From Pomacea canaliculata (lineage: Eukaryota > Mollusca > Gastropoda > Architaenioglossa > Ampullariidae), in the NCBI RefSeq assembly GCF_003073045.1, contig NC_037590.1, positions 9,443,042-9,507,041 of the forward strand: a stretch of 64,000 bases of DNA, read 5' to 3'. This document shows, piece by piece, positions 3,751-30,502 of the stretch. The translations under genes were made by a program, and so were the position numbers. How positions within the stretch are numbered: the stretch's first letter is position 1; every line of letters begins with the position of its first letter. Below the pieces are notes generated by a model, which worked only from the letters and a program-made list of their open reading frames with translations, was not told the origin of the DNA and made no database searches.

Positions 3751-6700
3751 TCAGTTTTGAGAAGGTTCGAGTTCCAAATACTGAGGGTTGCTACTTTTGC
3801 CCTCTTCTGAATCAGCCGACTGGTGTCTGACCACCAAGGTGGGGGTGAGACCCAGGGGGGTGTAGCCGCCGTCAGGACTGGTTTCCGTCACGGACTTGAT
3901 GTCGATCTTATCGAAGTACGTGGCTTCCTCCAGCGACCTGTCAGGTCCTTCAGTGGCCCTCGTCTTCCTGTCGGTGGCGGGAGATGGCGCCACGTGCTTG
4001 GCCAGGACGTACGGACGGTCTTGTGGAGGAGGCTGGATGGCGACAGTTGCAGGATGTTCAGGTAACTGATTCTTGTAGTACACACAGGCCACGTCTGGCA
4101 GCAGATAGTCGTCGTCGCTGTGGCTGGTGGTCGTCGGAAGTTGGTAAGGAATATAAGGCTCGGGTAACCACGGCTGATGGCCAGCAGGTCGACTGGTCGG
4201 ACTTTGGGGTACCTAGAAATGACCAGCACCATCTTTATAACACGTGGAAGCACCCTGAACATAGAGTATCAGCCCCTATGTAAACGACTTACACAGCTTT
4301 ACAGTTCATTAAATATTAAACCGGAATCTGCCGTTAAATACTAAATACACTCTGTAAAGCTATTGAGGTTTTTATTTTTGTAAGAATGTTCATTTATATT
4401 GCATCGCTCTGTATGTTTATTACCAGTCCAGCCTTCTATCCTTGATAGAAATTTATACTAATTCACACGCCTACTGACAAATAAATACATCGTATACTTT
4501 CAAATAATATGACGGAGCCTGATTTTGTAGTGTCGTCTCATTATTTCTTCATTTGATACAAACATTCATCTTTTAATTGAGATGCAAAAGTTCTGTCTGG
4601 CGGCTTCAAAGTAATACATCAATATTCTTCTTTATAAAAGATTCAAAAAATAATATTGTGTAAGTTGTTAATTAATCTAAATTGACTAACACATAATTCA
4701 AATGTTTTCACCTTTTTTGCGACCTACGTAAGAGGCGAGAACTAAGTCGACGTGGCGCACACGAGGATTCACGTACCTGAGAGCGATCGCGGATACCCTG
4801 GCTGGTACACCAGTCATCTGTCGGTGATGTTGTCTTTCCCGAGCGTTTGGACTCGGTTGTCCTGATGATCAAATGTACATCGAAGTATGAACTAAAAACT
4901 ACAAGTAACACGACAGAAATGTATAGGAGCTAAATATCACCACAAACCTTGTCAACCTTCCATGATACAAAACTACCAAAAAGGCTGGAAAAGGAATTTT
5001 TTCTCACAGCTTCTAATTCCCGCACGCACACACAAGAAATAAAGAAAGCAATATTTATCTATTAACTTAAAAATATACGTGTCGTATTGATTCTGGAATT
5101 ATCATTTTTACTTTTAAAATAAACTCATCTCATTTTTACAGCAAAAAATATTGTTTAGAAAACGTATTTTAAAAATCGTGGAAGTCCAATAAAGATTTGT
5201 AGTTTTTATATCTATGATCTAGTGGCTATTTCAGGTTTTGGGCGAATTTCATGTGCTCAAAGCTTGCAATGTCAATTTTGATACAATTCTGAAAGAGTTG
5301 AAGGTTGCAACAGAAGACAAGACTAGGGACTGGTGGGCGAATACATTTGGGGATACTCCTTTTTTTACAGGACAGAATGGTTTGAAGACAGTAGAAGAAC
5401 AAAGTCTAGAGGAGGTTTGTCCACACATCCTGTGATATTGCATGGCAGGACGTACAGACGATGTTTGAGCTTTCGTTGTCGCACGCAGAGAACGACGATG
5501 ACGACGATGAGCAGGAATATCAGCGACACAGCACAGACCCCCCAATCAGCCTCAGAGGCAAGGACTCAGCTGAGGAAACAACAGCCACACATTAATACAA
5601 CCTGCGCATCTTATAACAGGTTACCTGTGTTTAGGTTACCAGGGAGCATAAACAGAGAGTCACAAATCATCGTTCACACCTGAAACCGTTTTAATCAGTC
5701 AAATGTTTCAAGAGGGGAGCATGAAATAGTAACTCGAAATAAACAATACTTGAAGCTATTGTTAATCTACTGTATAGATTAAACATATGTCAATAGTAAT
5801 AATATTATCACCGATGTCAGGGTGGAATACATCGTCACTGTTATCAGTATTGTCTCTATGAGTTCCTCTGCTCACCCGACTGTTGAGTAAAGGTGTTACA
5901 GGTACAGTGGTATAGTCTCAACTTGGTGTTGAAAAACTTCTCCGTCGTCACCTGTACATCAGTTGAGCTGCACAGCGGAGCTGTAGAGTTTCCCTTTAAC
6001 CTGTTTGATGATGATTATTATTAAAGTTATTGTTACCTGTTTATATTTCATTCTACCACACATCTTGCTGTTCTGTTACACTATATTGTGCACACGTATG
6101 TGAAATTTTATGATATTTTCTTTGTTTAGTTTTCTTTGTTAAAGGTATTCTATGAGAGACTGACCTGCACAGTTTGTCGAGGTATGTGTTGTCCTCTTGG
6201 GTGTTGTCTAAACAGGTTTTGAGTTTCCTCCAGCTGTCCTCTCTAGAGCTGCTTCCTTCTAGAATGGGGGATAACTCCTCATCACCCAGTATTTCCTTGA
6301 TGGATTCTCTCGCCTGAGTTGAGCACTGGTTGTCCAGAACCCTGTAGCCGCCGTTGGCGTTTTGGTACAACAGACTGCAACAGTCGGACGACTGGAGTGT
6401 ATCAGGTGATAGACCCAGTACTCCGTGAAGTGAGGTACCCAACTTTACAGCTGCGACACCCTGGGTATGTGGATCTTGTGCCAGTCTACACGACTGGAGG
6501 GTCGCACACCGTCCTTCTAATCGCTAGGCTATCCGCTCCTCTTCTGTGATTTCGTGCGTGCGTGTGTGTTTGTGTGTGAGGGAGAGAAAAAAAAGAGAAG
6601 AAGAAAGAGAAAGATGGAGGGATACCTACCCACAGATGTTACGGAGCTGAATGTTGTCGCCGGCCAGGATGCGGTGAAGGTTCTCAGACTTATACAGCTC

Positions 6701-7889
6701 CACGGTACAGGCGTGAAACTCGCTGCACTTCTGTCGCACGATGTTGAGGTTGTCCTTTACATAAGAGTTGTGTTGTCCTGGCAAACCACACCATAAGGTC
6801 ATTACATGTGTGGGTGGGTGTATGAGTGTGGGTGTGTGGATGTATGAGTGTGAGTGTGGGTGTGAGTGTGGGTGTGTGTGGGTGTGTGAAACCATTTCAA
6901 AAGCTCGGAGCCCCCACTCAGTTACAACTGTGCAAGAATCTGATTCTGTTTGACTGTGTGACTGACATGACGACACTAAGTCACACGTGATCTCTGAGTT
7001 GTTTCCTCCCCCGGTTACAATCGAGTCTGTGTGTCGTCTGACTCAGTGAGCATAGATGCCCGAAATACACAATTGAATTTAACCGAATCCTTATAACGAG
7101 GCCATCTGACTGCTCAAACACGTTTTTAAACTAGACAAGAGGAAGAATCAACCTCTGTAAAAGTATCTACACTATATACAGTTCGTCAGTTAATTACTCT
7201 TTCACATCGTAACATGGATAATAAATAAACATGACTAATGATCTTGTAATAACAATGTTGTCAGAAGTACACTTAATGGCAGTATAAAATAGAATTTAGA
7301 AATATTTATTACTTGTCATGCTAAACTGGACAGTGGGACAAGAAATTTAACTCAATCCTCTATGACTAATCAGAATGGACAAGGCGGGTACACAGAGTTA
7401 CATCTCAGTAATATTTACATCCAGTGTTTGATGAAAACACCTTTGTAAACATGATTATAGTTACTTGAGAATCGGTGTAAGAATCGTAGTCTTATCAAAG
7501 GGACCAGAGCCAGAGACTAACCTGAGTTCCTCCCACAAGGAGTGCTCATAGTTGCTGCAGTCGTAGTTGCTGTAGTCGTAGTTGCAGCAGTCGCACGTGT
7601 AGTTACAGGACGTATTGCTGTCCGTTTCGTCGTGCTTCGACCGGATGTTTTGCCTGCAAAAAGTGTGAAAGTCGGTGTTTGTGGAAAGTAGCTGTATTTT
7701 GAGACATACGACATCTTTTCTTATTTGAGACGGTTATTGTTGTTGTGATATCTCACACTATTGTTAGTAAGACCGAGTAAGAAAACGCGAGGAGGAATGC
7801 GAGATTCACTTACCTGAAGTTGATGTTTGTTTTTGAGTGACGTGTACAATGTTCATGGTGGTTTGTGTCGGAAATACCGTTGATATCAT
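3751..7889 (-). CDS. Gene A: single-pass receptor-like membrane protein, Cys-rich ectodomain, Tyr-motif tail
   Basis: A family I do not recognise; paralogous to genes B and C. Exons read on the minus strand: 7814-about 7889 (5' limit unsure, no signal peptide found), 7522-7653 (Thr/Ala-rich), 6630-6777 (three Cys, ends IQLRNICG), 6165-6374 (three Cys, ends DKLCR), 5876-6000 (ends YHCTCNTFTQQS), 5456-5569 (TM, SLIFLLIVVIVVLC, then RQRKLKHRL), 4777-4861 (TTESKRSGKTTSPTDDW) and 3751-4212 (153-residue tail, stop at 3751). Junctions have GT/AG sites and matching phases. The TM exon is one base short: frame 1 reads SLPLRLIGG and the hydrophobic run continues in another frame after a run of six C (plus strand 5538-5543); a seventh would restore both frame and exit phase. 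The tail carries DYLLPDV, ATYFDKI and DGGYTPL, shared with gene C. Inferred: a cell-surface receptor or adhesion protein. Head to head with gene B. Confidence 0.83.
4862..5455. other. Gene A intron with an unexplained open frame
   Basis: Intron between the TM and SK/SP-rich exons of gene A. On the plus strand a 65-codon frame (5238-5435), preceded by a possible acceptor (tatttcag), reads acidic, coding-like sequence (VATEDKTRDWWANTFGDTPF). I do not recognise it. It could be a relic of a transposon gene or chance. Confidence 0.3.
6405..6545 (-). repeat. tRNA-derived SINE-like fragment
   Basis: The minus strand reads gcggatagcctagcgatta, an A-box-like tRNA promoter sequence, followed by a Cys/Gly-tRNA-like stretch and ending beside gene A exon 6165-6374. 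It lies in the intron between the two Cys-rich exons. Only the tRNA-like head is evident. Confidence 0.4.
6803..6890. repeat. TG/GGGTGTG-rich simple repeat
   Basis: Imperfect runs of gtgtgggtg and gagtgtg in a gene A intron, immediately upstream (minus-strand sense) of the exon at 6630-6777. Confidence 0.8.
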
Positions 7890-8067
7890 CGATGTTTATT
7901 GATTGCCTACCCGAACAGCGAGGTTGATGGAGAGCTTATATTAGTTTTCCTCAAACTGCTCATCTATGAGGAAGTTAAACCTTCTGTCGGGAGGCTGGCG
8001 GGTGCTGATGGCCACGTTCACGTGACCTCTCTAGCAACTATGCTTTCGATGCTGTGCACGCGCGTTT

Positions 8068-8138
8068 GTGTGTGTGTGTGTGTGTGTGAGTGTGCGTTTC
8101 CGTGTGTTGTGTAATTTTTTTGTGATAACTGAGTAAAA

Positions 8139-8169
<31 letters not shown>

Positions 8170-8176
8170 AAAAGAG
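8068..8176. repeat. (TG)n followed by an A-rich tract
   Basis: A (tg) run at about 8068-8090 is followed by a run of about 45 nearly pure A interrupted by single G (8132-8176). It lies in the spacer between the divergent genes A and B. Confidence 0.85.
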
Positions 8177-8189
8177 TGTATGATACAAC

Positions 8190-9510
8190 TTCTCCAGATA
8201 TAGTTCAATACTCGTACTTTCATTTTCGAAATTCATGCCAAACTACAGTAAAGCGAATGTTCCACGATACTAGTTGAAGTCGATGAAGTGTTTAGGAGTA
8301 GAAAACTGCTAAATTTGCAAATAATTTCTTGCTCACTAAGTCAATAAATACTTCCTCTCTTCCGTTTTGCAGACATAAGGCTACAAAATTTTAAAAAGTT
8401 ACATCCGTGAAGCTGTAAATGTCTACAGACACTAAATAACATCCCTGACTGTGACTTCTTGCTTTCAGGAGTGTCTTGAACATAGATGGTGGTGACTGAT
8501 GTCTGTATGTAGATGCATAAATCTTATTGGCTGCGACTGAGAAGTTGTACAACAGAGACAACATCAATTAGTTGTTTACATCAATTCTGTCACTAAGAAG
8601 GGAGAAACTCGGTTCCACGTTGCGCAAAAACGTCTCCCGCATTTATTTATCTACTTTTCTTCAATCTTTTTAAAAATCTTTTTTCAGAGGGCAGATCCCA
8701 CTGCTAACATGTTTTGGTTTTTATGTCTTGCGGTTGTTGTCTCTAATTCCCGACGAGGAACAAGATGAATACTTGGATCTGCGAACTAATTCTTCTGCGC
8801 TTATTTTACTTCAGGAACAATTGTTACCAAGCTTCTAGAGTGCAAATCCAAAAGTCGCCATTGTGTTTCCGAGTTTTAGTTTCATTTTCCTCCATACATC
8901 TCAGTGGGAGTGGATTTACTGAGAATCTGGATACAAAAAGGCAAGAAACAGATTGAATACTGATATAAGGTTGGCTTTGACAAACTCTCGGCCTCGAATT
9001 CTCTTGCTGGTTGTCAAGATGCAGAGCTAATTATATCCTTGATGGTGAGTCATCACTGATTAGCATTAAAGGTTAATGTCTAAGACTCATCTAACACTTC
9101 TAAACATTACAGTCCAAAGCTCTGGCACACTTGTTCTGGCGACCACTTCTGATGGTATCACTCAAAGCCCGGCATCGCCACGTCCTGTGTCTCTGCACAA
9201 AACATTTTAACTTCCTCGTCATTGTGTGTTCTAGGAACCTGCTCACAGTCATCCAAACAACCTCATCTGTAAACAACTGTCATAGTGTGACACGCAGGCA
9301 GTCAGGCTTCCACGCTGAGGATCCTCCCAGACGTTTGTTCTGGAATCTGGAAACTTCTAGAGACTTCAGACAACAGAGTAACAACATCTCGTGCATTCAG
9401 GACGGGAGAAAAAACAAACACACAGTCATCGGAAGTGCAGATCTTCCTGAAAAGCGAACTTCTACACTCACAGGAAAAAAACAAAACAAAACAGAAAAGC
9501 TAAGAATCGC
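8190..9510. other. Spacer between divergent genes A and B
   Basis: About 1.3 kb that should hold the promoters and first exons of both genes. A possible plus-strand signal-peptide start lies at 8709 (MFWFLCLAVVVSNS), but I see no convincing donor after it. A CCAAT-like box (attgg, minus sense) is at about 8526. No other feature is supported. Confidence 0.35.
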
Positions 9511-12500
9511 GTGATTGTGACTAAAGAAGTGAGAAGAAGGATGTCAGGTCAAACTAATCCACTAACCAGTCCCCCCCAGGAGACCTCTAGCAGCCACACA
9601 AAGACCCTGGAGACAAGGAGGGGAGCTGACACTCCTCCACGGACACAGACCGAAGGTTGTGATGACGAGGACGATTGTGGCAGCAGCAATAACTATGACA
9701 ACAATGTGGGAAATGATGTGAATACAGGTTAGTGAGGTGTAAACACACACAATATATATATACAGTGATACCTCGGTTCTCGAACGCCTTGGTTTTCGAC
9801 CAAATCGGTATTCGACCAGGAAATTCGAGAAAATTTTGTCTTGGAATCCGAACAAATATTTGGAACTCGAACATCCGAACGTCCGAGATGAGCCGAGTTG
9901 AGCCGAATGGCGTTCATTCAGCCAGAGATCTGTAGGGACCTACAGATCTCTGATTCAGCCCAGCGCGCCTTGCTTGCGTCATCAGTGTGAGTGCAGAGAG
10001 AGAGAGAGAGAGTCACGTTTTTGTGGAGAGAGTCATGAAATGTGTGCAAATTGGGCAGAAATCGCAAATTTTGTTGAACAACATCACCCTGATAAAGTGG
10101 TAGCAAATAGAGCAGTTAACATTTTTAATGACAATGTTATGTCCACTTTCCGCAAAATTTTGCAAAGGAGAAAAAAACAGCAAACAATTGACAAATTCTT
10201 CCGTAAAGAAATCAGACAAGCAACTGCAGAGCAAGATTCTGATTCTCCTCAGCAAAAGATACAGAGAACAGAAACACCCGAAGAGCAGTTACCCTCTGTT
10301 TTTATTGAAGAGGACTCCCCTTCAATACAATAACCATCCCCCTTCCCTCCTCCCTCCACATTCATTCCCTCCTGCCATAAAGTTTGGTACAGGTACAGTA
10401 AATGAAACACAATTTACTGTACTGTACAGTACATTTTATTTATTTTTTTTTTGTTTTAATAAATACACTTTTATTTCTTATTTCTTGATGAGACTCATGT
10501 TTTTCTACATATTATATACAAATTAGGCCAGTAAATAGGCATTTTCTGGGGCTTGGAACGAATTAATCCAGTTTCCATTATTTCCTATGGGTTTCATTGC
10601 TTCGGTTCTCGAACAATTTGGTTCTCGACCGTCCTCCCGGAACGAATTATGTTCGAGAACCGAGGTATCACTGTATAGTGCTTTTTCTTTCTCTATACAA
10701 TGAGCGACTTTTATTGTGAAAGATAAGAAGAAAGACGTGTATAAGATGGCCGCCTGTAGACAGCTGTCATCCTCCCTCAACATCCTCTTACTATCTCATT
10801 GTTTTGCTTCCTCATTCATTCTTGCTGCTGCAGTACAATGTTTTGAAACGTAGGATGATGGATGTTAATTACATAACTGAATACATAGAATCTTCATTCA
10901 TCTTGTGTTTTTGTTGACTTTTTGCAGTCGACAATCAAGATGTTCCTGATGGTCACAATACGAGTAGAAGAAGAGGTTATCCTCATAACAATAAGAAAAC
11001 GTCTCTTTCTCTCTCTCTCACACACACGTACGCACGCACGCACGATAAGATACACATCTTATAAAAACAGTTTGTCAACATTTTTTGACATTTCCGTCGC
11101 TCTTACTGGTAAATCCTGAAGTCTTTTGAAATGTAAGATAACTCATGCTTATAACAAGGCTGAACAACCTGCATTCATCTTTCTCTGTTAGCAAACCGAG
11201 ACACTGCTTCAACTTCTGAACATGCGAGGTCCTGTGAGGTCTCAGGTGAGAACAAGTATTTTTTCTTTATCTCTCTCTCCCTCTTTCATTCACACACGTG
11301 CGCATACATATGACGAAGTTAGTGTTAGTATGCATATACACCAATATAATTTTATTGTTGCTATGTGTAAGGTGTCCCTAGTTACCGAGTTAGGAAAGTC
11401 AAGCATAGATAATGCCGATGTTACAGATGATCAATGACTTGATCGAGGAAAACAGTAAAGCAGGTGAAGAACAAGCTGGTTTCAGGAAAAAATTATAGTA
11501 CAATAGATCGCATACTTACTATAATGTCACTCATGCAAAAGCAATTGGTCAGGAACAACAACAAAAAAAAAAACTATAAGGAACTTACATTGAATTTTGT
11601 AAAGCCTCTGTAACAATAAAAATTGTTACATGTGCTCTAGAAGAATGGTGTTCATGGAAAGATGCTCAGAGCCATCAAAGCTATGTATAAAAGTTTTTTA
11701 ATGGTACAGCAACAGATGGGATGGGGCCGAGTATTTCAAGTTTCCTAGATGTCTTAAACAAAAATTTTGATTTCGCTGTTTATTTATAAATTAACTAATA
11801 AATTCGACAAGAAGGTATGCACGGTATTCAGCTTTCCTCTGATTTTATTCAATTAATTATTCTGTTTGCTGGTGATATCGTGCTGGTGATACGGTAGTGG
11901 GTCTGCAAAATCAACTTCTTTTTTTTGTGTTAAGTTGCCAAACACCTTGTGGTTAACAAAGATAAAGCAAACCTTGCTGTTTTGGAAAGAAATTTGTTGA
12001 AATTCAAATGTCTACGTGTTGATGACAATCCAGATGCCTAGTATGCAATTTGTGTACACAATTGTTGATGGGTTTGTTATGCTTCCACTTGGGCCGATGG
12101 ACTAGTCAATGAAGGGATTCGCAACAATTTTATTCACAACTTGTCATTTATAGCATCCTGTATTACTGGGATTTCTTATCATATTAACCTAATAACATAT
12201 TTTATTATTTGTAAGCCATTTCTCTATCAGAAATAGTAAAACAGATCGTTGACAATTTCTGTTGACGTTAAGACTGTTGTTAACAACTAACCATGATGCT
12301 TTTGTCTTTTTTGTCACAGACGTGCACAAAGACTATATTGAAAATAACAGACATATAATAGAGAACAAATGCAAGATGTTATACACATGTACCAGGGAGC
12401 TGTACAAAACTGAAACCCTCAGTCGTATCTTGGAAGGCGGTGATATCCAGCTCCATAACATCTGTGGGTTAGTATACAACAGCAAACTCTACCTCCACTT

Positions 12501-15410
12501 TCTTTTGTGTGTGTGTGTGTGTGAATAGACATGAAAATATCCACATAATATTGAATTGCATTTCAAACAAAAATACATACTCACCTACTCACATATACAA
12601 CACATACGTACATGCATAAATTCTTTTGAATTTGTTTTAATCAGTTTATTTCCTTAACCACCAAGGCATCATTTCAGTCTTTTGATAAAATGTGTAATGA
12701 GAGACACAGAAGGTTGAACTTGGTATTGCAGCCACTGAGTTTCTGGCGGCTTTACTGTCTGGTGTACATGACTGGTGTACATGACTGGTGTACATGACTG
12801 GTGTACATGACTGGTGTATATGACTGGTGTACATGACTAGCATTACAACCTTGTGTACCCGACACAAACCTCAATCGTCTGTTCTTGTTCCAGTGTACTG
12901 ACTCAATACAAGGACGACCAGAATGCCACAGAGACTAACAGATGCGGGCCTGAGGCGAGAAAATTTTTAAAAAGGGAGCTAGAAGAGGAGCTGAAGATCA
13001 AGATAGAAAAATATAATGATGATTATGGTCCTGATGATGATGATGAGCCGACCTGGCAGAACCTTGCTAACTGCCTAAACAATACGGCGGATCTAGACAA
13101 GCTCTGCAGGTATTTTCTTGAGTGAAATAACAATTATTTACGATTTCACCGACAATAGCAACTTTCTCTATGTTCTCTTGCTATCAGTAACAATGCATCT
13201 TCTAAAGGTCGTCTCAGACCAGGGGAAGAAACGATCCGTGAAAACTTTAAAGTTCCACTGAATTGTCACATGTATTTGCAAGTATTTACTCTTTTCTTAT
13301 TACTATTGTTATCATTGTTGATACATGTACACGTTTATGCGCTACCACAATGTTAGGCTTGTGTTCTGAGTGCTAATCAACCACACGAACAATGTAAGTG
13401 GTAGAAAAAAACCCTAAAAAAGCTTCAGATGACATGAAAAATAGTCAGACTGAATGTGGGAACCTAAAACTCCAGATGTTGTTCAAATCACCTCAATCTA
13501 CCCCAAAACAACACTGGTTTCCTGTGACTTTCACCTTCATTACTTCACACACAACTTTCCAAGCTTGGTCAGACGTTTAACGGCATTTGTCTGGGTAAGA
13601 CTGACCTTTGGCCTGTGTATGACTTAGGGCTGAGTCATCTGCCAACTGTATTAACATCTACTGGCGGCTGACACCTACAGTGAGTGGGTATGTTGTAATC
13701 AGGTGTAGCCGTGTAGAGTTGTTTACACACAATACGCAGTAAACATTTCAGGTAAGTGCAGGCAGATGGATAAAATAATTTTTGTGCCATCCACAAACAG
13801 GTTTCAAAAGGAGCAGAGTCAGTGCCTCTCTGTGGATATAGAGTCAAAAACGGAGAAGCTTCTCAACACCAGGCTGAGGACAATGCACTGCTACTGCGAA
13901 GGTTTATCTCCAGGTAGGTGATACCAGGTGCCTACAACATTTCTTTGAAACGAGGGTGAAAAGGAAGGTAGGAGCTTTACTATGTTAAGGACTTTCTAGG
14001 AGATCTATGTGTATTTCTGAGCACCTCACAAATATTTCTAAATATCTTTGTCGTTTGTTGTATCTAGTCGACAAACATTGCCATTCCATCGCCATTTTTG
14101 CTTGACGACGACGATGACGATGACGATGACTTAAAACGCGCAACATCACGACTGAGAAAGATGGCATTTATTTGCAGTTAGATAACGGACCAGTGACTAA
14201 CATTTTGGGGCACTTATATGGGTCTGTTAGCTTTGTCCTCCAACTTGTGAGACACACACACAAGCACGCACACAGTATAAGACTCTATATATATAATTAT
14301 ATTTATTCCCTGCCGGTATCAACTGGGTGTGATACTATGCTCACCTGTCTGTCCTACCTATCATCCGATCACATGCTTCTGCAAGGGGTGGCTGTAGAGA
14401 ATTGAGAGACACCGGCATTGCAGGTGTTAACAGAAAGGTATTGCAATCAGGTCTTTCTATGTTCCCCTGTTACTATCTAGACAGAGATCAGTTACTGTAA
14501 CTCATGTTCCCATAACTTGTCTCCTTTGTTTTCTCAGCCAGGTCCTTACCTCTAGTACCGCTGGTTGCCGGGGTCTGCGGCGGGGCGCTGGTGTTGTTGG
14601 TCATCTTCATCATTTTCCTCCTCTTGCGACGGCGCAAGCTCAGAGGTGAGTTGTATAAACACGATGACAGCCAACATGTCAACCTGTAAACATTCCACCT
14701 GCAACACCGACACGACCAGCTCTCTAGTCAACCTCGGGTCTCGCTACGACAAACGGCCGCCACGCGCTCCGTGACTACTTTACCTTTGAAAGTGCGAGGC
14801 CAATGTCTTATCTCTATTTTGTACGACCTTTGTATAAACGAAGGAAGACTAACAACCCGACTTCTTTTCAACCCAACGAGTCAGTTCCGCATGAATGGAA
14901 AACATATTCTGCATCTATTTTCATCATGTAATGGCTGTTTTGAAAACAAAGAATTCACCCATCATCTCGAAAAAGTTGTACCTTTTGAAGAAACAGCAGC
15001 TACATATGTGGAGAATCCCAGAATAAGACTGCACCTGAGTGTATACTGTGAACATCCGGCATTGGAGACATCCCTCGCCTCTTAAGGTAAGTATTCACGT
15101 CGCAAATACAGAGAATTGATAGATTAGGAAAACTTTTTTCACCTCGTGATGGCCATTGCAACCACACAAATTTTTCGAGACTTTCTTAGGACTGGAACAT
15201 CATAATTGATTTATTCTGCCCAGCATTATCCATTAACCCCTAGGACATAGTATCCTGTACCTTTGATATTTTGAAACGTCAACAACTAATATTTTTTCAC
15301 TTTCTGTCACTTCTAGGTTGAGCCCAGTCTAGAAAGCTCAAGAACGAGAACTAACAGAAAGTCTGAAATGCGAGAGCAGCAGCAGAAGCATTGACAACTA
15401 AAAGTTGACA
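9511..15410 (+). CDS. Gene B: paralogous single-pass receptor-like membrane protein, short or unresolved tail
   Basis: Paralogue of genes A and C. Exons: about 9511-9727 (Cys/Asp-rich linker), 10928-10975, 11192-11245 (both small, phase 1-1), 12320-12467 (three Cys, ends IQLHNICG), 12894-13109 (three Cys, ends LDKLCR), 13801-13913 (ends TMHCYCEGLSP) and 14538-14652 (TM, SLPLVPLVAGVCGG then LLVIFIIFLLL, then RRRKLRGEL). All donors, acceptors and phases agree with gene A and gene C. The ectodomain has an NAT sequon. No copy of the long Tyr-bearing tail is seen. The acceptor at about 15316 (cttctag) would give only a few residues before a stop in the expected phase, so the cytoplasmic part may be very short, or an exon is missed. 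The 5' end is uncertain and the signal peptide unplaced. Introns carry a Tigger derivative and a LINE relic. Confidence 0.78.
9763..10673 (+). mobile_element. Non-autonomous Tigger/pogo-like DNA transposon
   Basis: A 911-bp element with perfect 23-bp terminal inverted repeats (cagtgatacctcggttctcg...) flanked by TA on both sides (9761-9762, 10674-10675), the target duplication of the Tc1/mariner-pogo superfamily. Inside, 10035-10330 encodes the C-terminal end of a Tigger-type transposase (NRAVNIFNDNVMSTFRKIL, then KKQQTIDKFF). The DNA-binding and catalytic parts are absent, so it is an internally deleted copy. The perfect termini suggest a fairly recent insertion, in the first identified intron of gene B. 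Confidence 0.9.
11436..12080 (+). mobile_element. LINE (non-LTR) reverse transcriptase relic
   Basis: Conceptual pieces in shifting frames: GEEQAGFRKNYSTIDRI, LMQKQLVRN, IEFCKASV, EEWCSWKDAQSHQS, and FAGDIVL where an active element would have FADDIVL. This is the core fingers and palm of a non-LTR reverse transcriptase, heavily decayed by indels and stops. It sits in the gene B intron before the exon at 12320. Clade not assigned. Confidence 0.75.
12759..12838. repeat. 13-bp minisatellite
   Basis: About six head-to-tail copies of ctggtgtacatga with one internal variant (gtata), in a gene B intron just upstream of the exon at 12894. Confidence 0.93.
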
Positions 15411-15814: not shown

Positions 15815-17020
15815 CTAGTCATGGCCTCTTTCTTGGTAGCACGCCGTCCAGTTACCTGTACGTAAAATGAGATGAATTTCCGAATACAGCTTGTAAAACT
15901 CGTTTGCTGTCAAATTCACAGCCGTCACACGCGAGTTGATCGCCATCTCACAAGGTGACGGACGCTTGGACATCCAGAAAGAAAAACCCTCGTGAGCCAC
16001 ACGGCGTATCCCGGCACGCTTTGCGAGAATGCCGGTGACGTAGACGTCCTCCAGGTGCAGGTAGTCCGAGTTGCGGCTGGCGAGCAGGATGGCTCTGGCC
16101 GCCGTCACGCTCATCACGTAGCCGCCTCCGAAGACGTAGGTCGGGTAGACGTCGCTCGGGTAGTCCAGGTAGGTGACGAACCACTTGTCGGCGGGGTCCC
16201 GCACGACGGAAGAGTTGACGCACACGGCCCCCGCGATGCTGTAGTCGTCCCCCAGCGCGTGGCTGCGCAGCGCGTGCAGTAGGTACGGCACGTTGACGTA
16301 GGTGTCGTCGTCCGTCTTCATGACGTAGCGCGCGCGCGGGGCGTTCCGCGCGGACCACGAGAGGGCGCTCAGAACTTTGCGCGACAAGTTGAAGTAGGTG
16401 TCGGCCAGGTCAGTTTTGATGACATCGCTGTGCAGCTCCTGCTCTCTGGCGATGATGCTGTCCCAGCCGTCGTCTTGGCCGACGAAGAACCGGACCAGAA
16501 CCTTGGCGCTGTCGAGGTTCAAGCCCCACGTCCGTCGAACAGCCAGGCGCAGCTGAGTGTTTTCTGGTTTCGAGCACACGACGACAACCAAGAAAGGGTC
16601 CCAGTCGATCTTGCTTGTCCTGGGTGGCCAAGACGACACGACAGACGACTGTGAAACCACACCAAGTTCAGCCACGTGAGCTGCTGAAAACCTTTGACCC
16701 GGCATTCTGGGAATGGATGCCGAACCATTGACCTCTGAAACCCATTCGTTTCTGCTTAAATGCTGGAGGTTAGAGCAGGGCCGGCCGCTGCACGGACGGT
16801 ATTCTGGGAGGTCTGATGCTGGACCAGAGCTTACGACCAGAGTGGATGTTTTCAGACGCTGCTTTCTGGTAAACAAACCGTTATGCGAATGCTGCACTGC
16901 TGCAGCGCTGTTGAATTCGTACAGCAGCTTCAGTACCGAGCCGACCACAGCCAGAAGACTCAAGATGATGACCGGTCTGCGTGATCTGTTGAACCACTTC
17001 CAGCTTCCTCGCATTATCAC
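15815..17020 (-). CDS. Beta-1,3-glycosyltransferase, GT31 family (B3GALT/B3GNT-like)
   Basis: Intact 401-residue intronless type II membrane enzyme of the Golgi, transferring Gal or GlcNAc in beta-1,3 linkage to glycan acceptors. Layout: short cytosolic N-terminus with basic residues, signal anchor about 15-34 (VIILSLLAVVGSVLKLLY), a stem to about 135, then the catalytic domain. GT31 landmarks are all present: RRTWG at 162, the metal-binding KTDDDTYVNV with DDD at 237-239, YPTYVFGGGYVMS at 292-304 and LEDVYVTGILAKRAGI at 323-338. NxS/T sequons occur in the stem and catalytic domain. Length is usual for the family. It starts at the first Met before the anchor. Codon use is much more GC-rich than its surroundings. 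The exact donor/acceptor pair cannot be told from sequence. No link to the neighbouring receptor-like genes is evident. Confidence 0.96.
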   Translation of the reverse strand: MIMRGSWKWFNRSRRPVIILSLLAVVGSVLKLLYEFNSAAAVQHSHNGLFTRKQRLKTSTLVVSSGPASDLPEYRPCSGRPCSNLQHLSRNEWVSEVNGSASIPRMPGQRFSAAHVAELGVVSQSSVVSSWPPRTSKIDWDPFLVVVVCSKPENTQLRLAVRRTWGLNLDSAKVLVRFFVGQDDGWDSIIAREQELHSDVIKTDLADTYFNLSRKVLSALSWSARNAPRARYVMKTDDDTYVNVPYLLHALRSHALGDDYSIAGAVCVNSSVVRDPADKWFVTYLDYPSDVYPTYVFGGGYVMSVTAARAILLASRNSDYLHLEDVYVTGILAKRAGIRRVAHEGFSFWMSKRPSPCEMAINSRVTAVNLTANEFYKLYSEIHLILRTGNWTACYQERGHD

Positions 17021-17040
17021 AGGCCCGAAGTCATCCAGCT

Positions 17041-20317: not shown

Positions 20318-20449
20318 GCTTATATGCTTCACCTCGGTCTCTCGCTTTTATATAAAATCCGGTATTTCGGTACACGGACGTTTCTGCGCGGGGCACTTCA
20401 TTTCGGCATTTCACGCGGGACCTTTAGCCGAAGTCAAGTGTGGGACGCC

Positions 20450-20563
20450 CCTTAGCTCACACATTTCTCTCGCCATTGTATCAATGTATCAGTGAACTCT
20501 CTCTCACCATCCCTCCTCATGTGAACCGTTAGCTCACACATTTCTCTCGCCATTGTATCAAAG
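20450..20563. repeat. 33-bp direct repeat pair
   Basis: The string ttagctcacacatttctctc with its continuation through gccattgtatcaa occurs at about 20452 and again at about 20529, 77 bp apart, in the upstream region of gene C. Confidence 0.85.
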
Positions 20564-21826: not shown

Positions 21827-22081
21827 CAGGGCCGCCGAGAGCCAGCCCGGGCCCCGGGACAGACCTCTCCGGGCCCCTTGTACTTGTAATCGTAAATTAT
21901 TTTCCCAGTATATAATGTACTTTTACAATTCCAATCTCAATATCTACACTCAAACTCAACTTCTGCATGTGTAATGCTTGGGTGTTCTGTCCTTAGACCT
22001 TTCTTTAAAAGAAAAAGAAAAGGAGAAGAAGAAAAAAAATCCACTGACCAAGGCCGGGCCCCCTTGACAGCCGCGGGCCTG
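21827..22081. mobile_element. Possible GC-ended MITE
   Basis: The ends cagggccgccgagag and (reverse complement) caggcccgcggctg are similar but imperfect inverted repeats around an AT-rich core with a GA-rich tract (about 22011-22040). No clear target duplication. Tentative. Confidence 0.35.
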
Positions 22082-22467
22082 GGTACACCAGACCCCCCTG
22101 TCCCCCCCTCTCGTCAGGCCTGGGTATGCCGGGATATTGTGACTCATTGAAGACTGCGTCACAAGACCGGCCATTACGAGGGCTTACGTCACCTACTTTT
22201 GTGTCCAGCGGGTGAGACCCCAACAACACTATGGGCGATACCCCCTACGTCACGTGGTCCCTTCCCCTTCGACCCCTGCTCCCAGCGCACGTGGCCGAAA
22301 CGCGGTCGTGCGACGCTTGAGCCAGCCAGGGAAGACTCGTCCCTTGACATCGCACGCTCGTCTCTTCCAGGACCAGCTCTTACCTGCCATGGGGTGCCTG
22401 ACGTAACAGCGACTGCGAGCGTCCAGGGTCAAATCGCGGCAAGGAGGGCAACAACCAAAGAAGTGAA

Positions 22468-25400
22468 ATGGCCGACGACGAATTAAATCTCGCAGGTGGC
22501 CATAATCCGGACAGTAAAACAACAACTACCACTACTACCACCATGACTACAACAACCACGAGGAGTTTAAAGACACCGAGACCAAGACCGACTACACCAA
22601 AGCCTACTACAACCACCGTTAATGTTGTGACACCAGAAGACAGCAATACAGGTGATGATAACAGTGGTGAAGGTGCGGACCCAGGAGAAGGCCAACAAGA
22701 GGCGGACCAGTGTTCAACACAATGTGAACCTCTCGCAGGTGAGTGAAAAACGTCTTTAGAAAACCTTTGCACTGACCCGGACCGGCAGGTTTTATGAGAC
22801 CCTTCACATCCGTTTTGCAGCATTTCAGTTTGTGACAGTAGAAAGGAGTCAAATGTGCTGCTACCAGCGATTCTACCTTGGGATGCAAGATTTAAAAAAT
22901 TACCACCACACTTTCAAATACATGTATTGCAAGATAGGTTATGCAATAACAATATAGTTCAATGAATAAGGTCCTGAAATTTGTTTACCATTGACTAAGG
23001 TGACCAGACATTTCGGGGGCGAAAGCGGGACACGTGCTGATGATAGTGTCGTCACGGTCAAAGAACGCCGAAAAAGGGGGGGGGCGCTGTGGGGGGCCTT
23101 TCCTCTGACTTTGCCGGATGCGAATCAGCGTACAATATTCAGATTTTTAAAGACAACCGAAACATTTGATGGACTTGCCAGAAAGCCAGAAAGCGGGACA
23201 TTGGGCGTCCCGCCCGATGAGCAGGCGGGACACGAGGTCAAAAGCGGGACTGTCTGGTCACCTTACATTGACACAAGAAACTTACATTACACTAGTTCTA
23301 CACGAATTTTATTATTTTTCTGGATATTTGTAGTAAGGTATGCATACATTTGTCTATTTAAGTCTTTATTTCTGTAGAGTAGACTTTTGTATGTAACAGT
23401 AAGGAATTCATGACAAAGCGTGGGAGGTATGTATTCACATGTGCGTGTGTGAATCTGCTTTGCATGTGTCTGTCTATAGAGAATGAAATATGTGCCAGTA
23501 ACATGGACAGCATACCAAAATAAACCATAGCTTCCATTGATCAACGAAACAGTTGTTATTATCTCACATAATAGATTGTAATATCCTTTTTAGTTGAGAA
23601 AGTTTAAGTTAGTTTAGTACTTGTTACTCCTCGAGGAGCGTACAGCAGGAACAACACCTTATTCAGTTGAGAAAAATGATGCTTCAACAAAAATAATGTC
23701 CTGACTTGAATAAAGATTTTGCAGTTAAACTAATCACAAATCTGCAGCATGATGTGATAAACAACAGACACAGTATTCTACATCAATCAGTTTTACTTAA
23801 TAGAGGTATTGGACTGAATGTCTATGAAACAAGTGACAATGAATATGTTTCAGTATTATTTTAATAGCTCAATGAATCATTTATTTATTAAGGACTTCCT
23901 GTCATAACATAGGATGTTGTAATAGTGGTAACAGTTTTAAAATAGTGGGGTGAATTGCAGTACAATGCAGTCATCGAAAAATAATGCATCATGCAAAATT
24001 TAGTTATAAAAGACCCTTTCACTATTGTAACTAATTTTTTTGGGAAGATGTTCATGCATAAGCCTAAATACCCTAAAGTTCTAGCTAGAAATGAAGGAAG
24101 AAGTAGAAGGAGAAAGGTTGTAACGAGTCGTAGGGGTTATGAACCTTCCTCAGAGCCTGTCTATATTACAAAACTTTGGATCGGGTTCATCCAGACTGGA
24201 TTAGCCAGGAACAGAGCTCAACTGGTCATATGGTGTCAGTATTAATGAGCAGTTGCGCAGTGACAGTAAAGACAGGTGATAGGCAGTCATTGCTTTCACC
24301 TAGTATCAAAACATCTTTTGAGATTACCTTAGGATTGAGATAATACAGAAAATCCTTTCTAAATCCCCCATGTTGACATATATGTTACTGCCTTTGTTTG
24401 TGTTTTACAATAAGATGATAATGATCTGATAATGAATAATGCATGGTTATAATAATTATCTGTGTAAAAGTTATTCTTTGTCTTTGGTTTACAGTGTTTA
24501 TATATTGCGTAATACAACGAAGGCTCTGAAATCTTGAGATTAGTGTGCTTGACTAATATTATGCTCACTTGGGTCATTAACTAGAAACTCTCCTACACTA
24601 CCAAAATTCTGCTTCACAGTTGAGAGTTAGAATGTAGGAATCAGTAGTTGCCAAAGGGAACTCACGGACTAGCCCCTTATCTTATAGAGCGCTGTCCAGC
24701 AGGAAAGATGCCCTAGGCCTAGGGTAAAGTAACAAAGAGCGATGTTTACACGGTTTGCTCACAGCTTCGAAACTTCCCGTTCGCCCCCGAGGCAACGTTT
24801 CACTTCGCATGCAAACTAAGCTCAAGTTCCCAGTGATACTGGTCAGTCCTTATAACCTGACGGGTTGAAGGTCACGGTCACGGTCACGGTCAGAGAGCAA
24901 AGTGGCTGCTGACAACCAGTAAAGAGTACCGCGGGCGCAGACGGTTAATCAGTGGACTGGCGCGGCCACGGCCGGCGGTGACCGGTGGCTGACGCCTGTT
25001 TGTCCAGCCTCGTGTGTGAACACATGTATGACGAAGCCTTCCTCGTGAAGGAGGGATGTTACAACCTTTTGATTGACGTTACAGCCTCACTTCCTCTTTT
25101 TCTCTTCTTACTGCCCTCTCCCCCCCCCCCGCCTCCACAAACACACCACCGCCTGCTGTGGGGCAGCTGATGATCGCAGTTCGAACCTTGGCAGTGACAC
25201 ATCGAGTCACGCGGTGCGAGCTACACCTTCGTTGGCTGAGAATACATAGATATAGCTGTCAAGTGAACTGTTATTTCCAGAACGTGTATGTGTCCCCAAC
25301 AGCATTTTGATTACAGATGAAGTTTTGGTCGACTGATATAAATGTGTCTCACCGACCTGAAACTAGTTTCACACCAGTGAAATATCCCCAACATTCCAGT

Positions 25401-28400
25401 TGGAAACCCTGCGTATCATGCTGTCTTCAGACCTCAGCGTGCTGCCCTGTATGCCATTCGTACCAAGGAGCAAAAGCCTCTATCACTCCGAGTAGCACCT
25501 CACCTACAAGCTGCCGGAGTAGATATTAATCACGTAGAACCTTTATCTCTGCAAGCAACTCCTCCTTGGACCCTTCCTGTTCCAGATATCCGTTTTGATC
25601 TTACAGCTTTCAAAAAAGGGGACACTAGTGACCCCATCTACCTCCAATACATTCGTGAACTCCTTTCTGACTATCTTACATTCTGCTCAGTTTTTACAGA
25701 TGGCTCCAAAATCCCAAGGGGTGGCCCAGTCGCTGCGGCAGCAGTTCCGTTCTGCCAACCACAACGGGCTGTTTCAGTCCGACTGGCGGATGAATGTTCT
25801 ATTTTCACAGCGGAGCTCCATGCCATCTTGCTTGCCTTGCAGCATGCTCACCGCTCTTCGGAGCACAACTTTTTGATAATTTCAGACTCTCTCTCTGCTC
25901 TCCAAGCATTTCAATTTCATTTCAAATGATTCTGACCACCCCCTTGTGGTTCAGATTCATAAAATTCATGCAGCACTTATTCAACGAAATAAGGACATTG
26001 TCTTTATTTGGGCTCCTGGCCATTCTGGTATTCCAGGCAATGTTCGAGCAGACCAGGCTGCCAAGGCTGCATGTCAGTCCCCTGGTAAAATACAGTCACT
26101 TATCTCATCCGACTGCAAACCTTTATTCTCAACCTACATTCTGACCTTATGGCCCCACAGGTTGAGAACCGCTGGTTTAGATGGTAGGATTTTGTTTTGA
26201 CAATGATTGAACAAAGAAAATGGTGATGTTTGGTCGTCGGTAGCCGCTTTGGGTTGCGTAGAACAGGTCGGTGGCAGATCTTCGTATAGTCCCGCATTAG
26301 TCTCAGTGACTTTTATACTCACGTTTATTGTTTTCATCTTTGTTTATGCGCCATTTGCATTCAAACTCTATTCCTAGTTCCCAAATTGCGGACTTAAATG
26401 AACTATTCCTTTGACCGACATTTCGGGAAGGAGGGTAGAATCATTGCATCGAAGAGTGCGTGCACGGAATTATCATCATCCTTCCTGTGTTCCTGAGTCC
26501 ACTGCCTTGACGCCACAACACCGACGACAGCGGCTACCGGTGTCACGTGGTCCGTGTACAGGAACGACATCGCGGATGTACTATGCCGACTTTATAAAGA
26601 ACCTGAACTGCGGTCTTTTGAAATGCAGGATAAAATTTCAGTAATCTTCTTTAGTGACCACGGAAAGCTTGTAGTGTGATTAGCTGTTGTTAAAATATAA
26701 GGTAGGAAAGTGTCGAGGGAAAGAAAGAAAGACTGTGTGCAAGGGAGGCAACAATGCAGGGGAACACCGAGAAAACCACAGTGCAGGCCCCTGCCGAGAA
26801 TCGAGGCTGCACAGAGTTCGCCACCAGTGGTCTGTGGGATTTCTTTGTGGTATTCTGAATGTGTTCATGTGGAGTAAACTTGGGAGGAGAGGGTTGTCTT
26901 TCACTGCTTTGTATCCTGTTACCTGTACTCAATGTTTTGAATCTGGGTGAACACCCGGCAGCTACCCAGAAAAACCTGCGTGTGGCACATCATACCACGA
27001 CACAGTGAAGCACATCGGTCTGACACTGCGATATATTTCACTGCATTACATCGGCTTTATACTTTGATTGATCATGTGTGAAATGTATGTTATACGTTTT
27101 TTTTTTCTTGGTACGACTTGGCTTTGTCTTTTCTGTCACAATCCCCGTTTTAGAAAGATACTAGGTTGGTATGTGGGTGCGCGAGTATGCGCAGACTCGA
27201 AGGAAGGATGTGTAATAGATGAAAATTATATACAACCTACAACATATCTTTGAAATTTACAGGTTAAAGAAGAAAAGTCTTTTGGATGTTTTAGTTTTTC
27301 TGCCATTGTATGCTGGTTGTTTGTGACAGATACCCACAAAGACTTCATTGAAAAAAACTTGGAGCTTATGCAGACGAAGTGCGATAAGTATCACACCTGC
27401 ACCGGGGAGTTGTTTAACTCGGAGAACATCTACCGCATTATTGCAGGTGGCAATATTCAGCTACGTAACATCTGTGGGTATGTATTGTAAACACGCATTT
27501 GTACAAACTTTTTCTTGTTTATTTATTTTTCTTTTTTTTTTTTCGTTATTTCTCTCCCTATTCTGTCACTATCCGCTCAATATTTTCTTTTTGTTTATAA
27601 GGCGTTTACTCTTGAGAAATAGAAATCTTATTGTGCAATGACTGCCATTTCAGTTTGTAGTTTGCAATACTTTACACTGGGTTTTCAATGTTTGTAAGAT
27701 TATTGTACTTCTTTAACTGTACACATGTCTAAGCGTGTCATTGCCCAGATTAATAAACACACATACATTATCTCACATCTATATACGTATGCACAGAGGA
27801 ATGGAATTAGTTATTTCCTCCCTCCTTCTACAAACTGTTGTAAAGATGCACAAAGCCCGAAGAGACTTGTAAACGTGAGTCGTACCCGTCCTGTTGCAGT
27901 CTAGTGTACAGCAGTTCTAATGGCAGCTACAGAACGCTGAATGACCAGTGCTCACCCACAGAGAGGGAGTCCATCAGACAGCAGTTGAACGATGAACTTA
28001 TAGCCAAAACGGAAAAACAGACGGACGAGAAGTCCGCATGGGGAAAATTATCTGCCTGCTTAGACAGACGTAAAATGGACGACGAAGATCCTATAAACAC
28101 CTTGTGCAGGTGTGTATTCTGAACAAAGGTCGATACTGATGACATGACCGACGAAAACAAATGATACAAGTACCCTAAGGCCTAGGAGACCCGAGTAGTG
28201 ATTATACGGATACAGCTTATGGAGGAAAATATTAAAACTAACCCGAATGCAAAATTATTCTCGAATGGGTTGGTTGAATAAAAAATCAGACACTACTTGC
28301 CAAAGTATGAGAGAAATAGTTTAGTTGTTTGATAAGTAAAAACAGTTTGACGACGCAGTTCACATCCGGGCTTTGGAGAAGTACCTGTGTTTGATGGGCA

Positions 28401-30502
28401 TGTAGGGTGTTCATTGTATGAATAATGTTTTAGGTGGGGCAGCTGCAAATTATATTTTTTACTGGTTTATTATCATTCAATACGCGTGTCATCACTAACA
28501 GGATAAAGGGAAGCACTACAGCCCCGCTGTGCAACATGACTGATGTGCAAACGACAACGGAGACATTTTTCAACGAGAAGCTGAGCGAGTTTCACTGCTC
28601 CTGCGATGCTGTCAAGGCATTAACTCAGGGTGAGACAGTGACCCACTAACTCATTTTTCGTGTGCGCATGTGCGTGTATCACATTTCTTTCTCCCATGTT
28701 TTATGTGTTTAGTTCTGCAGGTGTTAGCCCGAAGGTATAGGAGTATATTCGTTACCTGTATTTCCTATCTCTCCAGAATCGCCCGTGCGACTGGGTGCGC
28801 TGCTTGGCGGGATCTGCAGTGGGGCGGTCGTTCTGCTCCTTATCGTTGTCATCATCGTCCTTTGCCTTCGACACCGCAAGCTCAAGCGCCGTTTGTGTGT
28901 ATTTTCTTACGTTTTATTTTTAAAGGTTACTCGGGTGCAATTTTTTTTCTAATAATTTCGGTAAACTCAGTGCAGAATATTTTCCCTAATTTGAGTAAAC
29001 AAACACTTTTCGCTCTCGAGAAAAACGCCTACAAACATCATGAAGGACGTCAGCAAGACACTGACGTCAGAGTTGTACGTGAATACGTCTATGTTGTCAA
29101 GTCCTCAGCCAATGGGAGAGCTGAGGCCATATACCCGTTTGGTATGTCTGTGTACAAACATGACATTACGAGTCTGGCCTCTTTCTGTGCATGGTGATGC
29201 TTGTAGACGTGTCTGGAGAACGGACGGGTGGATTTACCCCGATCTGGGAAATAGTATTTTGCACTGAGTTTTACCCAATTATTAGGTACATCCCGCTAGT
29301 CCTTTAACTACCTTACATCGGTTAGTTACAAGAGCTAATGGTGAGGCATTTAAGTACTTGTACATTTTATGATGAACATTGCCTGAAGTAGGTGTAGAAA
29401 AGGTCGTGTATGTGTTTTACAGATGGAGCTACCATGTATTTGTAGTAATATTCCCGAAACAAGTCCTGTATTTATTACCTCGTATGTTTCTTACACCAGG
29501 ACAGCGGAGTCCAAAAGTTCAGGAAACAATATGTCGCCAATGGATGATTCTTGGCCCATCTACCAGGAGATTAATGATCCTTCTCGGGTATATATACTAT
29601 ATTAATTCCTGTACACATTTTTATTATTATATTTAATGTTGACCTGTTCATAGTCTAGCTGAAATCTCTTTATCTTTTGTCGTTGGAAGAATGAAATAAT
29701 ATATGTTTTTCATAGTCGTGCTGTTTTTGTTCTTTTTATTATTACCACCAAGGGACAGGCAATCCCAAAAATAGCAAAAGTTAAAAAGAACCTGCGTTAA
29801 TGACTGAAGATATTAATATGAACATACATTTATCAACAATCACACTCGTACTTTCACTGAGTGTAAAGTAATTCATTTCCTCATGTCATTTCTGTACCAG
29901 TGATGAGTATTTTATTTAGAGAACAGAATTGAAAGCAGAGAGTTCCCATGCGTCACGTGCCATTTGGTTTTAATTTGGAGCTTGTCTTTTTGTAGGGTCC
30001 CGATGCTTGGCTGAATTGGGGCAACCCTGGTTACCGGCTGGCCCACCGACCAGCCACGCTACCCAACCGCTACACGCTTACCTATCTTAAGGGTGCTGCC
30101 AGCCCCAACGACCACGAGTACCTGGAGCCGCTGCCGGACATCAGCAACGTGCAGCCTGGACAGACGCTGCCAGGCCCTTTGCGGGACCTCCAGTACGATC
30201 TTGCCCAGCAGGTCGCGCCCTCCCCGAACACTGAGAGGAAGACGATGGCGGGAGATAGTGCGGAGGGTGTCAGCAAACCGCCAGAGGAGAGCACCTATTT
30301 CGAGAAGCTCGACTGGCAGGCCGGGAAGGACAACGACGAGGACGGAGGCTACTCCACCTTGGTCCGCAAGCCCACTCTGCGCGTCCGGGGTCCACCGGAA
30401 GTCGGCGAAGAGTTGCAGCCCCTCAACAGCCAACCACCAGCTTCAGAGGAAGATCAAGGACATAGTAGTACTGCCGACCCACCGTACTTTGTGCTGGTGT
30501 AG
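22468..30502 (+). CDS. Gene C: intact single-pass receptor-like membrane protein with Tyr-motif tail
   Basis: Best-preserved member of the family. Exons: about 22468-22738 (Thr-rich linker, (T)n and PRPRPTTPKPTTTT, ends CSTQCEPLA; 5' limit unsure), 27330-27477 (KCDKYHTCTGEL, ends IQLRNICG), 27900-28109 (ends INTLCR), 28502-28629 (ends FHCSCDAVKALTQ), 28777-28894 (TM, SGAVVLLLIVVIIVLC, then LRHRKLKRRL), 29500-29587 (ESKSSGNNMSPMDDSWPIY), 29996-30502 (168-residue tail, stop at 30500-30502). Every junction has GT/AG and phases 1,1,2,2,1,2,0,0. No frame break. The tail contains NDHEYLEPLPDI, ESTYFEKL and DGGYSTLV, matching gene A in order. Nine Cys lie in the three conserved ectodomain exons. The signal-peptide exon was not found upstream. 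The Thr-rich linker suggests an O-glycosylated stalk placed at the N-terminal side. Confidence 0.86.
22996..23265 (+). mobile_element. hAT-like MITE, family 2, copy 1
   Basis: A 270-bp element with 14-bp inverted termini taaggtgaccagac / gtctggtcacctta. It is flanked by cattgac on both sides (7 of 8 bases if the duplication is taken as 8 bp). It matches 48331-48522 in inverse orientation. Lies in the large intron of gene C. Confidence 0.85.
24858..24892. repeat. (GGTCAC)n short tandem repeat
   Basis: Four near-perfect hexamer units ggtcac in a gene C intron. Confidence 0.85.
25395..26120 (+). mobile_element. LINE fragment with RNase H domain
   Basis: The pre-RNase H linker (RPQRAALYAIRTKEQKPLSL) is followed by RNase H landmarks: FTDGSK, FTAELHAILLALQHA, ISDSLSALQAF and WAPGHSGIPGNVRADQAAK. 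Arrangement after an RT is typical of I-group non-LTR elements that carry RNase H. At least two frame changes after SALQAF show it is dead. It lies in the large gene C intron. Confidence 0.85.
26140..26174 (-). mobile_element. hAT terminus fragment (Charlie-like)
   Basis: The minus strand reads cagcggttctcaacctgtgg followed by ggccataagg, the characteristic terminus of Charlie-type hAT elements. The partner end was not found, so only a fragment or a much-decayed copy is present, abutting the LINE relic. Confidence 0.55.

What the first reader, a model, noticed from the sequence alone, without database searches (positions are those of the whole stretch)
3751..30502. Unrecognised three-member receptor-like gene family with a conserved exon plan
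Genes A, B and C share exon order, exon phases (1-1-2-2-1-2-0), almost identical exon lengths (the NICG exon is 148 nt in all three, the next 210, 216 and 210 nt) and Cys positions: K-C-x5-C-T-x-EL...NICG; C...C...LC(R/K); C...C-x-C. I know no described domain with this nine-Cys layout. With a TM and an intracellular Tyr-bearing tail this looks like a lineage-specific family of surface receptors. This is the strongest candidate for an undescribed system here.
Basis: partly seen in the sequence, partly recalled or inferred. Interest (0 to 1): 0.85.

Follow-up and report, generated by a model that had tools for sequence, protein, structure and literature searches.

The report
Orphan cysteine-rich surface receptor gene family
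Three related animal genes appear to encode cell-surface proteins with an unrecognised cysteine-rich outer part, and two of them carry a long inner tail with conserved tyrosines, so they may form a small family of signalling receptors whose partner molecule is unknown.

Summary
Three paralogous genes (A on -, B and C on +) share a chain of gt..ag-spliced exons with matching phases. The "NICG" exon is 148 nt in all three and the next 210/216/210 nt. The ectodomain exons are under protein-level constraint: A-C dN 0.40, dS 1.59, the latter near saturation.

Corrections:
- Ten conserved Cys, not nine; the tenth lies 4-5 residues before the NICG exon.
- Only A and C have the long tail (5 of 9 tail Tyr aligned). 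B stops 14 residues after the membrane-flanking basic run.
- C's first recognised exon is 22468-22738.
- A decayed tail copy lies at 2778-2983.
- No convincing signal-peptide exon was found.

No Pfam model reached its cut-off; a PDB profile search gave three weak matches. The best look-alike, the GFRalpha domain, scored about like shuffled columns. Low-confidence exon models suggest mostly helices.

Best reading: single-pass receptors with a helical, disulfide-bonded ectodomain, phosphotyrosine-type tails and one tail-less member. Organism, lineage-specificity and ligand could not be tested.

The parts
7814..7889 (-). Gene A, putative first exon (76 nt), no signal peptide recognised
   Evidence: donor gtaagt, phase 1; in-frame TAA begins nine bases before the ATG; start is my choice
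7522..7653 (-). Gene A, Thr-rich N-terminal exon (132 nt), carries the tenth Cys
   Evidence: gcag/gttagt, phases 1-1; Cys 5 residues before the NICG exon
6630..6777 (-). Gene A, NICG exon (148 nt)
   Evidence: 53% identical to C
6165..6374 (-). Gene A, second Cys exon (210 nt)
   Evidence: 41% identical to C
5876..6000 (-). Gene A, third Cys exon (125 nt), C-x21-C-x-C
5456..5564 (-). Gene A, membrane exon (109 nt)
   Evidence: hydrophobic stretch then RQRKLKHR
4777..4861 (-). Gene A, first cytoplasmic exon (85 nt)
3751..4212 (-). Gene A, tail exon (462 nt, with stop)
   Evidence: tblastn to C tail E 9e-17; 5 of 9 Tyr aligned with C over the two cytoplasmic exons
2778..2983 (-). Decayed tandem copy of gene A's tail end
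   Evidence: 79.5% over 215 aligned bases to 3726-3936; stops and a frame change
2575..2669 (-). Copy of gene A's 3' flank
   Evidence: 74.7% over 95 bases to 3517-3611
9541..9727 (+). Gene B, putative first exon (187 nt)
   Evidence: donor gttagt, phase 1; start is my choice
10928..10975 (+). Gene B, short N-terminal exon (48 nt), tentative
   Evidence: gcag/gttatc, phases 1-1
11192..11245 (+). Gene B, short N-terminal exon (54 nt), carries the tenth Cys
   Evidence: ttag/gtgaga, phases 1-1; Cys 4 residues before the NICG exon
12320..12467 (+). Gene B, NICG exon (148 nt)
12894..13109 (+). Gene B, second Cys exon (216 nt)
13801..13913 (+). Gene B, third Cys exon (113 nt)
14538..14689 (+). Gene B, membrane exon, stop 14 residues after RRRKLR (no long tail)
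   Evidence: no tail relative of A or C downstream of B up to gene C among tblastn hits with E to 10
22468..22738 (+). Gene C, putative first exon (271 nt), Thr-rich, carries the tenth Cys
   Evidence: donor gtgagt, phase 1; Cys 5 residues before the NICG exon; start is my choice
27330..27477 (+). Gene C, NICG exon (148 nt)
27900..28109 (+). Gene C, second Cys exon (210 nt)
28502..28629 (+). Gene C, third Cys exon (128 nt)
28777..28894 (+). Gene C, membrane exon (118 nt)
   Evidence: hydrophobic stretch then RHRKLKRR
29500..29587 (+). Gene C, first cytoplasmic exon (88 nt)
29996..30502 (+). Gene C, tail exon (507 nt, with stop)

Best explanation
A small family of single-pass surface receptors. 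Outside the cell: a Ser/Thr/Pro-rich N-terminal segment, then one mostly alpha-helical domain of about 160 residues held by ten conserved Cys (probably five disulfides). Across the membrane: one helix followed by basic residues, which places the C-terminus in the cytosol. Inside (A and C): a long tail with five aligned Tyr, two of them in closely matching acidic contexts (EE(A/S)TYF(D/E)K(I/L)D and DGGY(T/S)xL). These are probably phosphorylated when a ligand clusters the receptor and then recruit SH2 or PTB proteins. B has the same outside but almost no inside, so it would act as a decoy, a dampener or a chain that needs a partner. Shown: gene structure, Cys conservation, protein-level constraint, shared tail Tyr, absence of a recognisable tail in B. 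Inferred: topology, disulfides, fold, phosphorylation, ligand-driven signalling.
For: Shared exon chain and phases. Ten Cys in all three genes. Ectodomain dN/dS pairs 0.40/1.59, 0.55/2.23, 0.58/1.98; whole A-C cytoplasmic part 0.53/1.64. N-terminal segments 48, 32 and 41% Ser/Thr/Pro. Basic run after the hydrophobic stretch in all three (the positive-inside rule is recalled). Five of nine tail Tyr aligned between A and C. Exon models mostly helical.
Against: No signal-peptide exon recognised, apart from one implausible candidate near B; in A an in-frame stop begins nine bases before the ATG. Exon models are fragments at mean pLDDT 66.0 and 63.3, and the exon-2 model has two short strands. No chance control was run for the Tyr alignment, and one of the five aligned Tyr sits in a poorly matching context. 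The A-B membrane exon shows little constraint (dN 0.65, dS 0.77). No transcript, structure or binding data.
Confidence: 0.6

Rival explanations
1. The ectodomain is a diverged GDNF-receptor-alpha (GDNF/GAS1) domain, so these are GFR-like co-receptors with a tail of their own.
For: Ten Cys, as in GFRalpha-like domains (PMC3527400, passages); the C-x21-C-x-C spacing equals that of GFRalpha1 domain 2, and a C-x5-C occurs in both.
Against: Other spacings differ: 21,5,24,17,35,15,10,21,1 in C against 6,5,10,8,4,21,1,4,11 in GFRalpha1 domain 2. No GDNF/GAS1 model among Pfam matches to E 10. Profile-profile probability 1.1%, score 18.49, against a best shuffle of 18.4 (40 shuffles made; those without a hit are not in the count); ten-Cys version 1.0%; control GFRAL against GFRalpha1/2 95%, an easier case. 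The family profile holds only three sequences, so very remote kinship stays open.
Confidence: 0.1
2. Members or kin of the polymorphic single-pass transmembrane clusters (GRC, PTC2) of Biomphalaria snails, that is, immune recognition receptors.
For: Clustered single-pass genes with few recognised domains are the published description of PTC2 (PMC7494358 and PMC11426442, passages).
Against: GRC ectodomains are described as rich in beta strands, four of seven with FN3 domains (PMC4361660, passages); here exon models are mostly helical and no FN3 match was listed. The A-C ectodomain (dN 0.40) is not faster than the cytoplasmic part (0.53), although exon 2 alone (0.57) is as fast as the tail exon (0.57). 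Paralogs do not measure polymorphism. PTC2 sequences and the species were not available.
Confidence: 0.15
3. A transmembrane mucin, adhesion or endocytic protein whose tail Tyr serve sorting rather than signalling.
For: Ser/Thr/Pro-rich N-terminal segments; the tail motifs YTPL and YSTL fit a YxxL sorting signal as well as a phosphotyrosine site (sequence; motif meaning recalled).
Against: Several Tyr are shared along a long tail, more than a sorting signal needs (inference).
Confidence: 0.15

Closest known systems
GFRalpha / GFRAL (GDNF/GAS1 domain)
   Same: Ten Cys; one C-x21-C-x-C stretch of equal spacing in GFRalpha1 domain 2
   Different: Remaining spacings; no sequence or profile similarity above shuffled columns; GFRalpha proteins are GPI-anchored (PMC3527400)
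Snail GRC/PTC1 and PTC2 single-pass (TM1) gene clusters
   Same: Clustered paralogous single-pass genes with ectodomains of unclear homology
   Different: GRC ectodomains beta-rich, four of seven with FN3; sequence homology to PTC2 not testable here
Vertebrate paired receptors (long-tail and short-tail paralogs; recalled)
   Same: Paralogs that share the outside but differ in the inside
   Different: No Ig or lectin domain matched; B's hydrophobic stretch holds no charged residue to pair with an adaptor (sequence)

Membership tests
Any Pfam-A family | Score above the curated cut-off | tested here: not met
   0 of 3 proteins; 18 rows listed to E 10, 12 of them overlapping the membrane segment
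GFRalpha (GDNF/GAS1) domain | Characteristic arrangement of ten Cys | tested here: not met
   Ten Cys present, but the spacings differ except C-x21-C-x-C and a C-x5-C
GFRalpha (GDNF/GAS1) domain | Profile similarity | tested here: not met
   1.1% (nine Cys) and 1.0% (ten Cys); GFRAL control 95%
GFRalpha (GDNF/GAS1) domain | Helical fold of the domain | tested here: inconclusive
   Only two single-exon models, pLDDT 66.0 and 63.3; whole domain not folded
[quoted passage not shown]
   A and C fit; B has about 14 residues after the basic run
Snail GRC/PTC2 TM1 clusters | Sequence homology to GRC or PTC2 genes | not testable with these tools
   Those sequences are not in the searchable collections
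Snail GRC/PTC2 TM1 clusters | Extreme allelic divergence | not testable with these tools
   One haplotype only
Single-pass receptor with phosphotyrosine tail | Conserved cytoplasmic Tyr motifs | tested here: met
   5 of 9 tail Tyr aligned in A and C, two in closely matching contexts; B lacks the tail; no chance control
Single-pass receptor with phosphotyrosine tail | Signal peptide or other means of reaching the surface | tested here: inconclusive
   One simple scan, one implausible candidate; sensitivity not measured

The most novel reading that the evidence does not exclude
The ectodomain is an undescribed ten-Cys, alpha-helical extracellular domain that defines a receptor family of its own, working as tailed and tail-less paired receptors with a phosphotyrosine tail, and possibly reaching the surface without a cleavable signal peptide.
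Probability: 0.35. Interest if true: 0.55.

Novelty: new member of a known kind. Interest (0 to 1): 0.38.

Why it matters
Single-pass receptors with orphan ectodomains are a known kind, and many invertebrate proteins lack a domain name (recalled). If the fold proves new, the family gets a usable signature (ten Cys, C-x21-C-x-C, fixed intron phases) for finding it in other genomes. The tailed and tail-less members give a direct test of whether it signals through tyrosines. If it proves kin to the snail resistance clusters, it would extend those immune loci.

Tried and rejected
Own-genome search: none held. Pfam scan of three spliced proteins to E 10: no family at its cut-off. PDB profile search to E 10: three matches, best E 0.13, none convincing. 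GFRalpha membership: rejected. Viral contigs: 115 pattern matches, none a relative by tblastn. Bacterial and archaeal genome contigs: 119 pattern matches, none a relative. Signal-peptide exon scan upstream of A (2.1 kb), B (4.8 kb) and C (8.7 kb): one implausible candidate near B, none for A or C; its sensitivity was not measured. Papers: listings; passages; no paper was read whole. Four family peptides searched as text: 0 papers. The listings (12 shown of 196 and of 206) held nothing that I judged relevant. Fold search was not run because both exon models have low confidence.
Full report
The window is eukaryotic (intron-bearing genes) and no genome is held for it.

Observation. I rebuilt the three genes exon by exon. 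From the Cys-rich region onward A has exons of 148, 210, 125, 109, 85 and 462 nt; B 148, 216, 113 and 152 nt (stop inside); C 148, 210, 128, 118, 88 and 507 nt (A's third exon end was corrected). The internal junctions are gt..ag and the frames stay open. With N-terminal exons added, intron phases are A 1-1-2-2-1-2-0, B 1-1-1-2-2-1, C 1-2-2-1-2-0.

The homology is far beyond chance: NICG exon hits between genes have E from 2.6e-15 to 3.5e-13, and A tail against C tail 9e-17. Substitutions favour synonymous sites in the ectodomain: dN/dS pairs 0.40/1.59 (A-C), 0.55/2.23 (A-B) and 0.58/1.98 (B-C). dS is near saturation, so ratios are soft. The membrane exon is less clear: 0.37/1.15, 0.65/0.77 and 0.42/0.97 for the same pairs. 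By exon for A-C, dN is 0.33 NICG, 0.57 exon 2 (dS not computable), 0.26 exon 3, 0.37 membrane exon, 0.34 first cytoplasmic exon and 0.57 tail exon, with overlapping bootstrap ranges for most.

Corrections. A tenth Cys comes from the exon before NICG and lies 5 (A), 4 (B) and 5 (C) residues before it. Spacings are then 21,5,24,17,35,15,10,21,1 in C; 21,5,24,17,36,14,10,21,1 in A; 20,5,24,17,42,10,8,21,1 in B. This supports joining C's exon 22468-22738 to its NICG exon, across a 4.6-kb intron in which two ORFs match RNase H. B ends 14 residues after RRRKLR, and tblastn to E 10 with the A and C tails found no tail relative between B and C. Beside gene A, 2778-2983 and 2575-2669 are 79.5% and 74.7% copies of its tail end and 3' flank, broken by stops and a frame change. 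LCR is invariant in all three.

What it is not. No Pfam model reached its cut-off: 0 of 3 proteins, 18 rows listed, 12 overlapping the membrane segment. A three-sequence ectodomain profile found three weak PDB matches, best E 0.13. Because ten Cys and C-x21-C-x-C recall GFRalpha, I tested that family. Profile-profile probability was 1.1% with score 18.49; the best of the column shuffles (40 made, those without a hit not counted) reached 18.4, and the reversed alignment scored 10.4. The ten-Cys version gave 1.0%; the control, GFRAL against GFRalpha1/2, gave 95%, though that is an easier case. Membership is not supported; with three sequences in the profile, very remote kinship stays open. PMC3527400 (passages) gives the ten-Cys definition of GFRalpha-like domains.

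The snail resistance clusters are the nearest published system in kind that I found. GRC holds seven single-pass genes with beta-rich ectodomains, four with FN3 (PMC4361660, passages). Grctm6 had no significant homology to known domains (PMC5310918, passages). Eight of eleven PTC2 genes are single-pass, with 166-530 codons (PMC7494358, passages); few genes of that region hold conserved domains and most fall into two paralog groups (PMC11426442, passages). SudRes1 of B. sudanica holds receptor-like phosphatases with EGF and galactose-binding domains (PMC12297450, passages), which Pfam did not find here. Homology to PTC2 genes could not be tested.

How it probably works. N-terminal segments are 48, 32 and 41% Ser/Thr/Pro. 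Exon models show helices in the NICG exon (3-20, 25-28, 31-39; mean pLDDT 63.3) and in exon 2 (19-39, 46-56, 64-68, plus two short strands; mean pLDDT 66.0); these are weak and cover fragments. A hydrophobic stretch followed by RHRKLKRR, RQRKLKHR or RRRKLR suggests a cytosolic C-terminus (sequence; positive-inside rule recalled). Five of nine cytoplasmic Tyr are aligned between A and C: two in closely matching contexts, two in partly matching ones, one in a poor one; no chance control was run. I infer a receptor that signals by tyrosine phosphorylation, with B as a tail-less modulator.

Unexplained. I found no convincing signal-peptide exon. In A an in-frame TAA begins nine bases before the ATG. 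B and C share the ten bases AAAGAAGTGA, ending eight bases and one base before their putative ATGs; whether this exceeds chance was not tested. Either the signal exon was missed or the proteins insert without a cleavable signal, as some type III receptors do (recalled).

Print status. Four family peptides searched as text gave 0 papers; two broader listings held nothing that I judged relevant. The library holds open-licence papers only and protein sequences are seldom printed, so this says little about novelty.

Verdict. A real small gene family with open reading frames and an ectodomain that Pfam and PDB sequence searches do not recognise; its receptor role is inferred. Interest is moderate and would rise if a whole-domain structure proves new.

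Noticed in passing
144-635 +: Stretch resembling a rhodopsin-family GPCR: 7tm_1 E 6e-6, 26.3 bits, below the 30.5-bit cut-off.
   Followed up: partly
15818-17038 -: Single-exon galactosyltransferase gene between B and C: Galactosyl_T E 5.8e-42.
   Followed up: partly
9759-10677 +: Element in B's first intron bounded by 27-base perfect inverted repeats; its ORF 9902-10330 has no Pfam match at E 0.01.
   Followed up: partly
25381-26200 +: Two ORFs in C's first intron match RNase H (E 2.4e-6 and 1.4e-6), retroelement-like.
   Followed up: partly
17.7-19.7 kb and 33.1-35.1 kb: The ORF list shows near-identical translations in these two places, so probably a repeated element; not aligned.
   Followed up: no
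36436-40584 -: Run of long minus-strand ORFs: four of the five scanned had no Pfam match at E 0.01, the fifth a sub-threshold RGM_C match (E 0.0028).
   Followed up: partly
9490-9540 and 22408-22467 +: B and C share the ten bases AAAGAAGTGA shortly before their putative ATGs.
   Followed up: no
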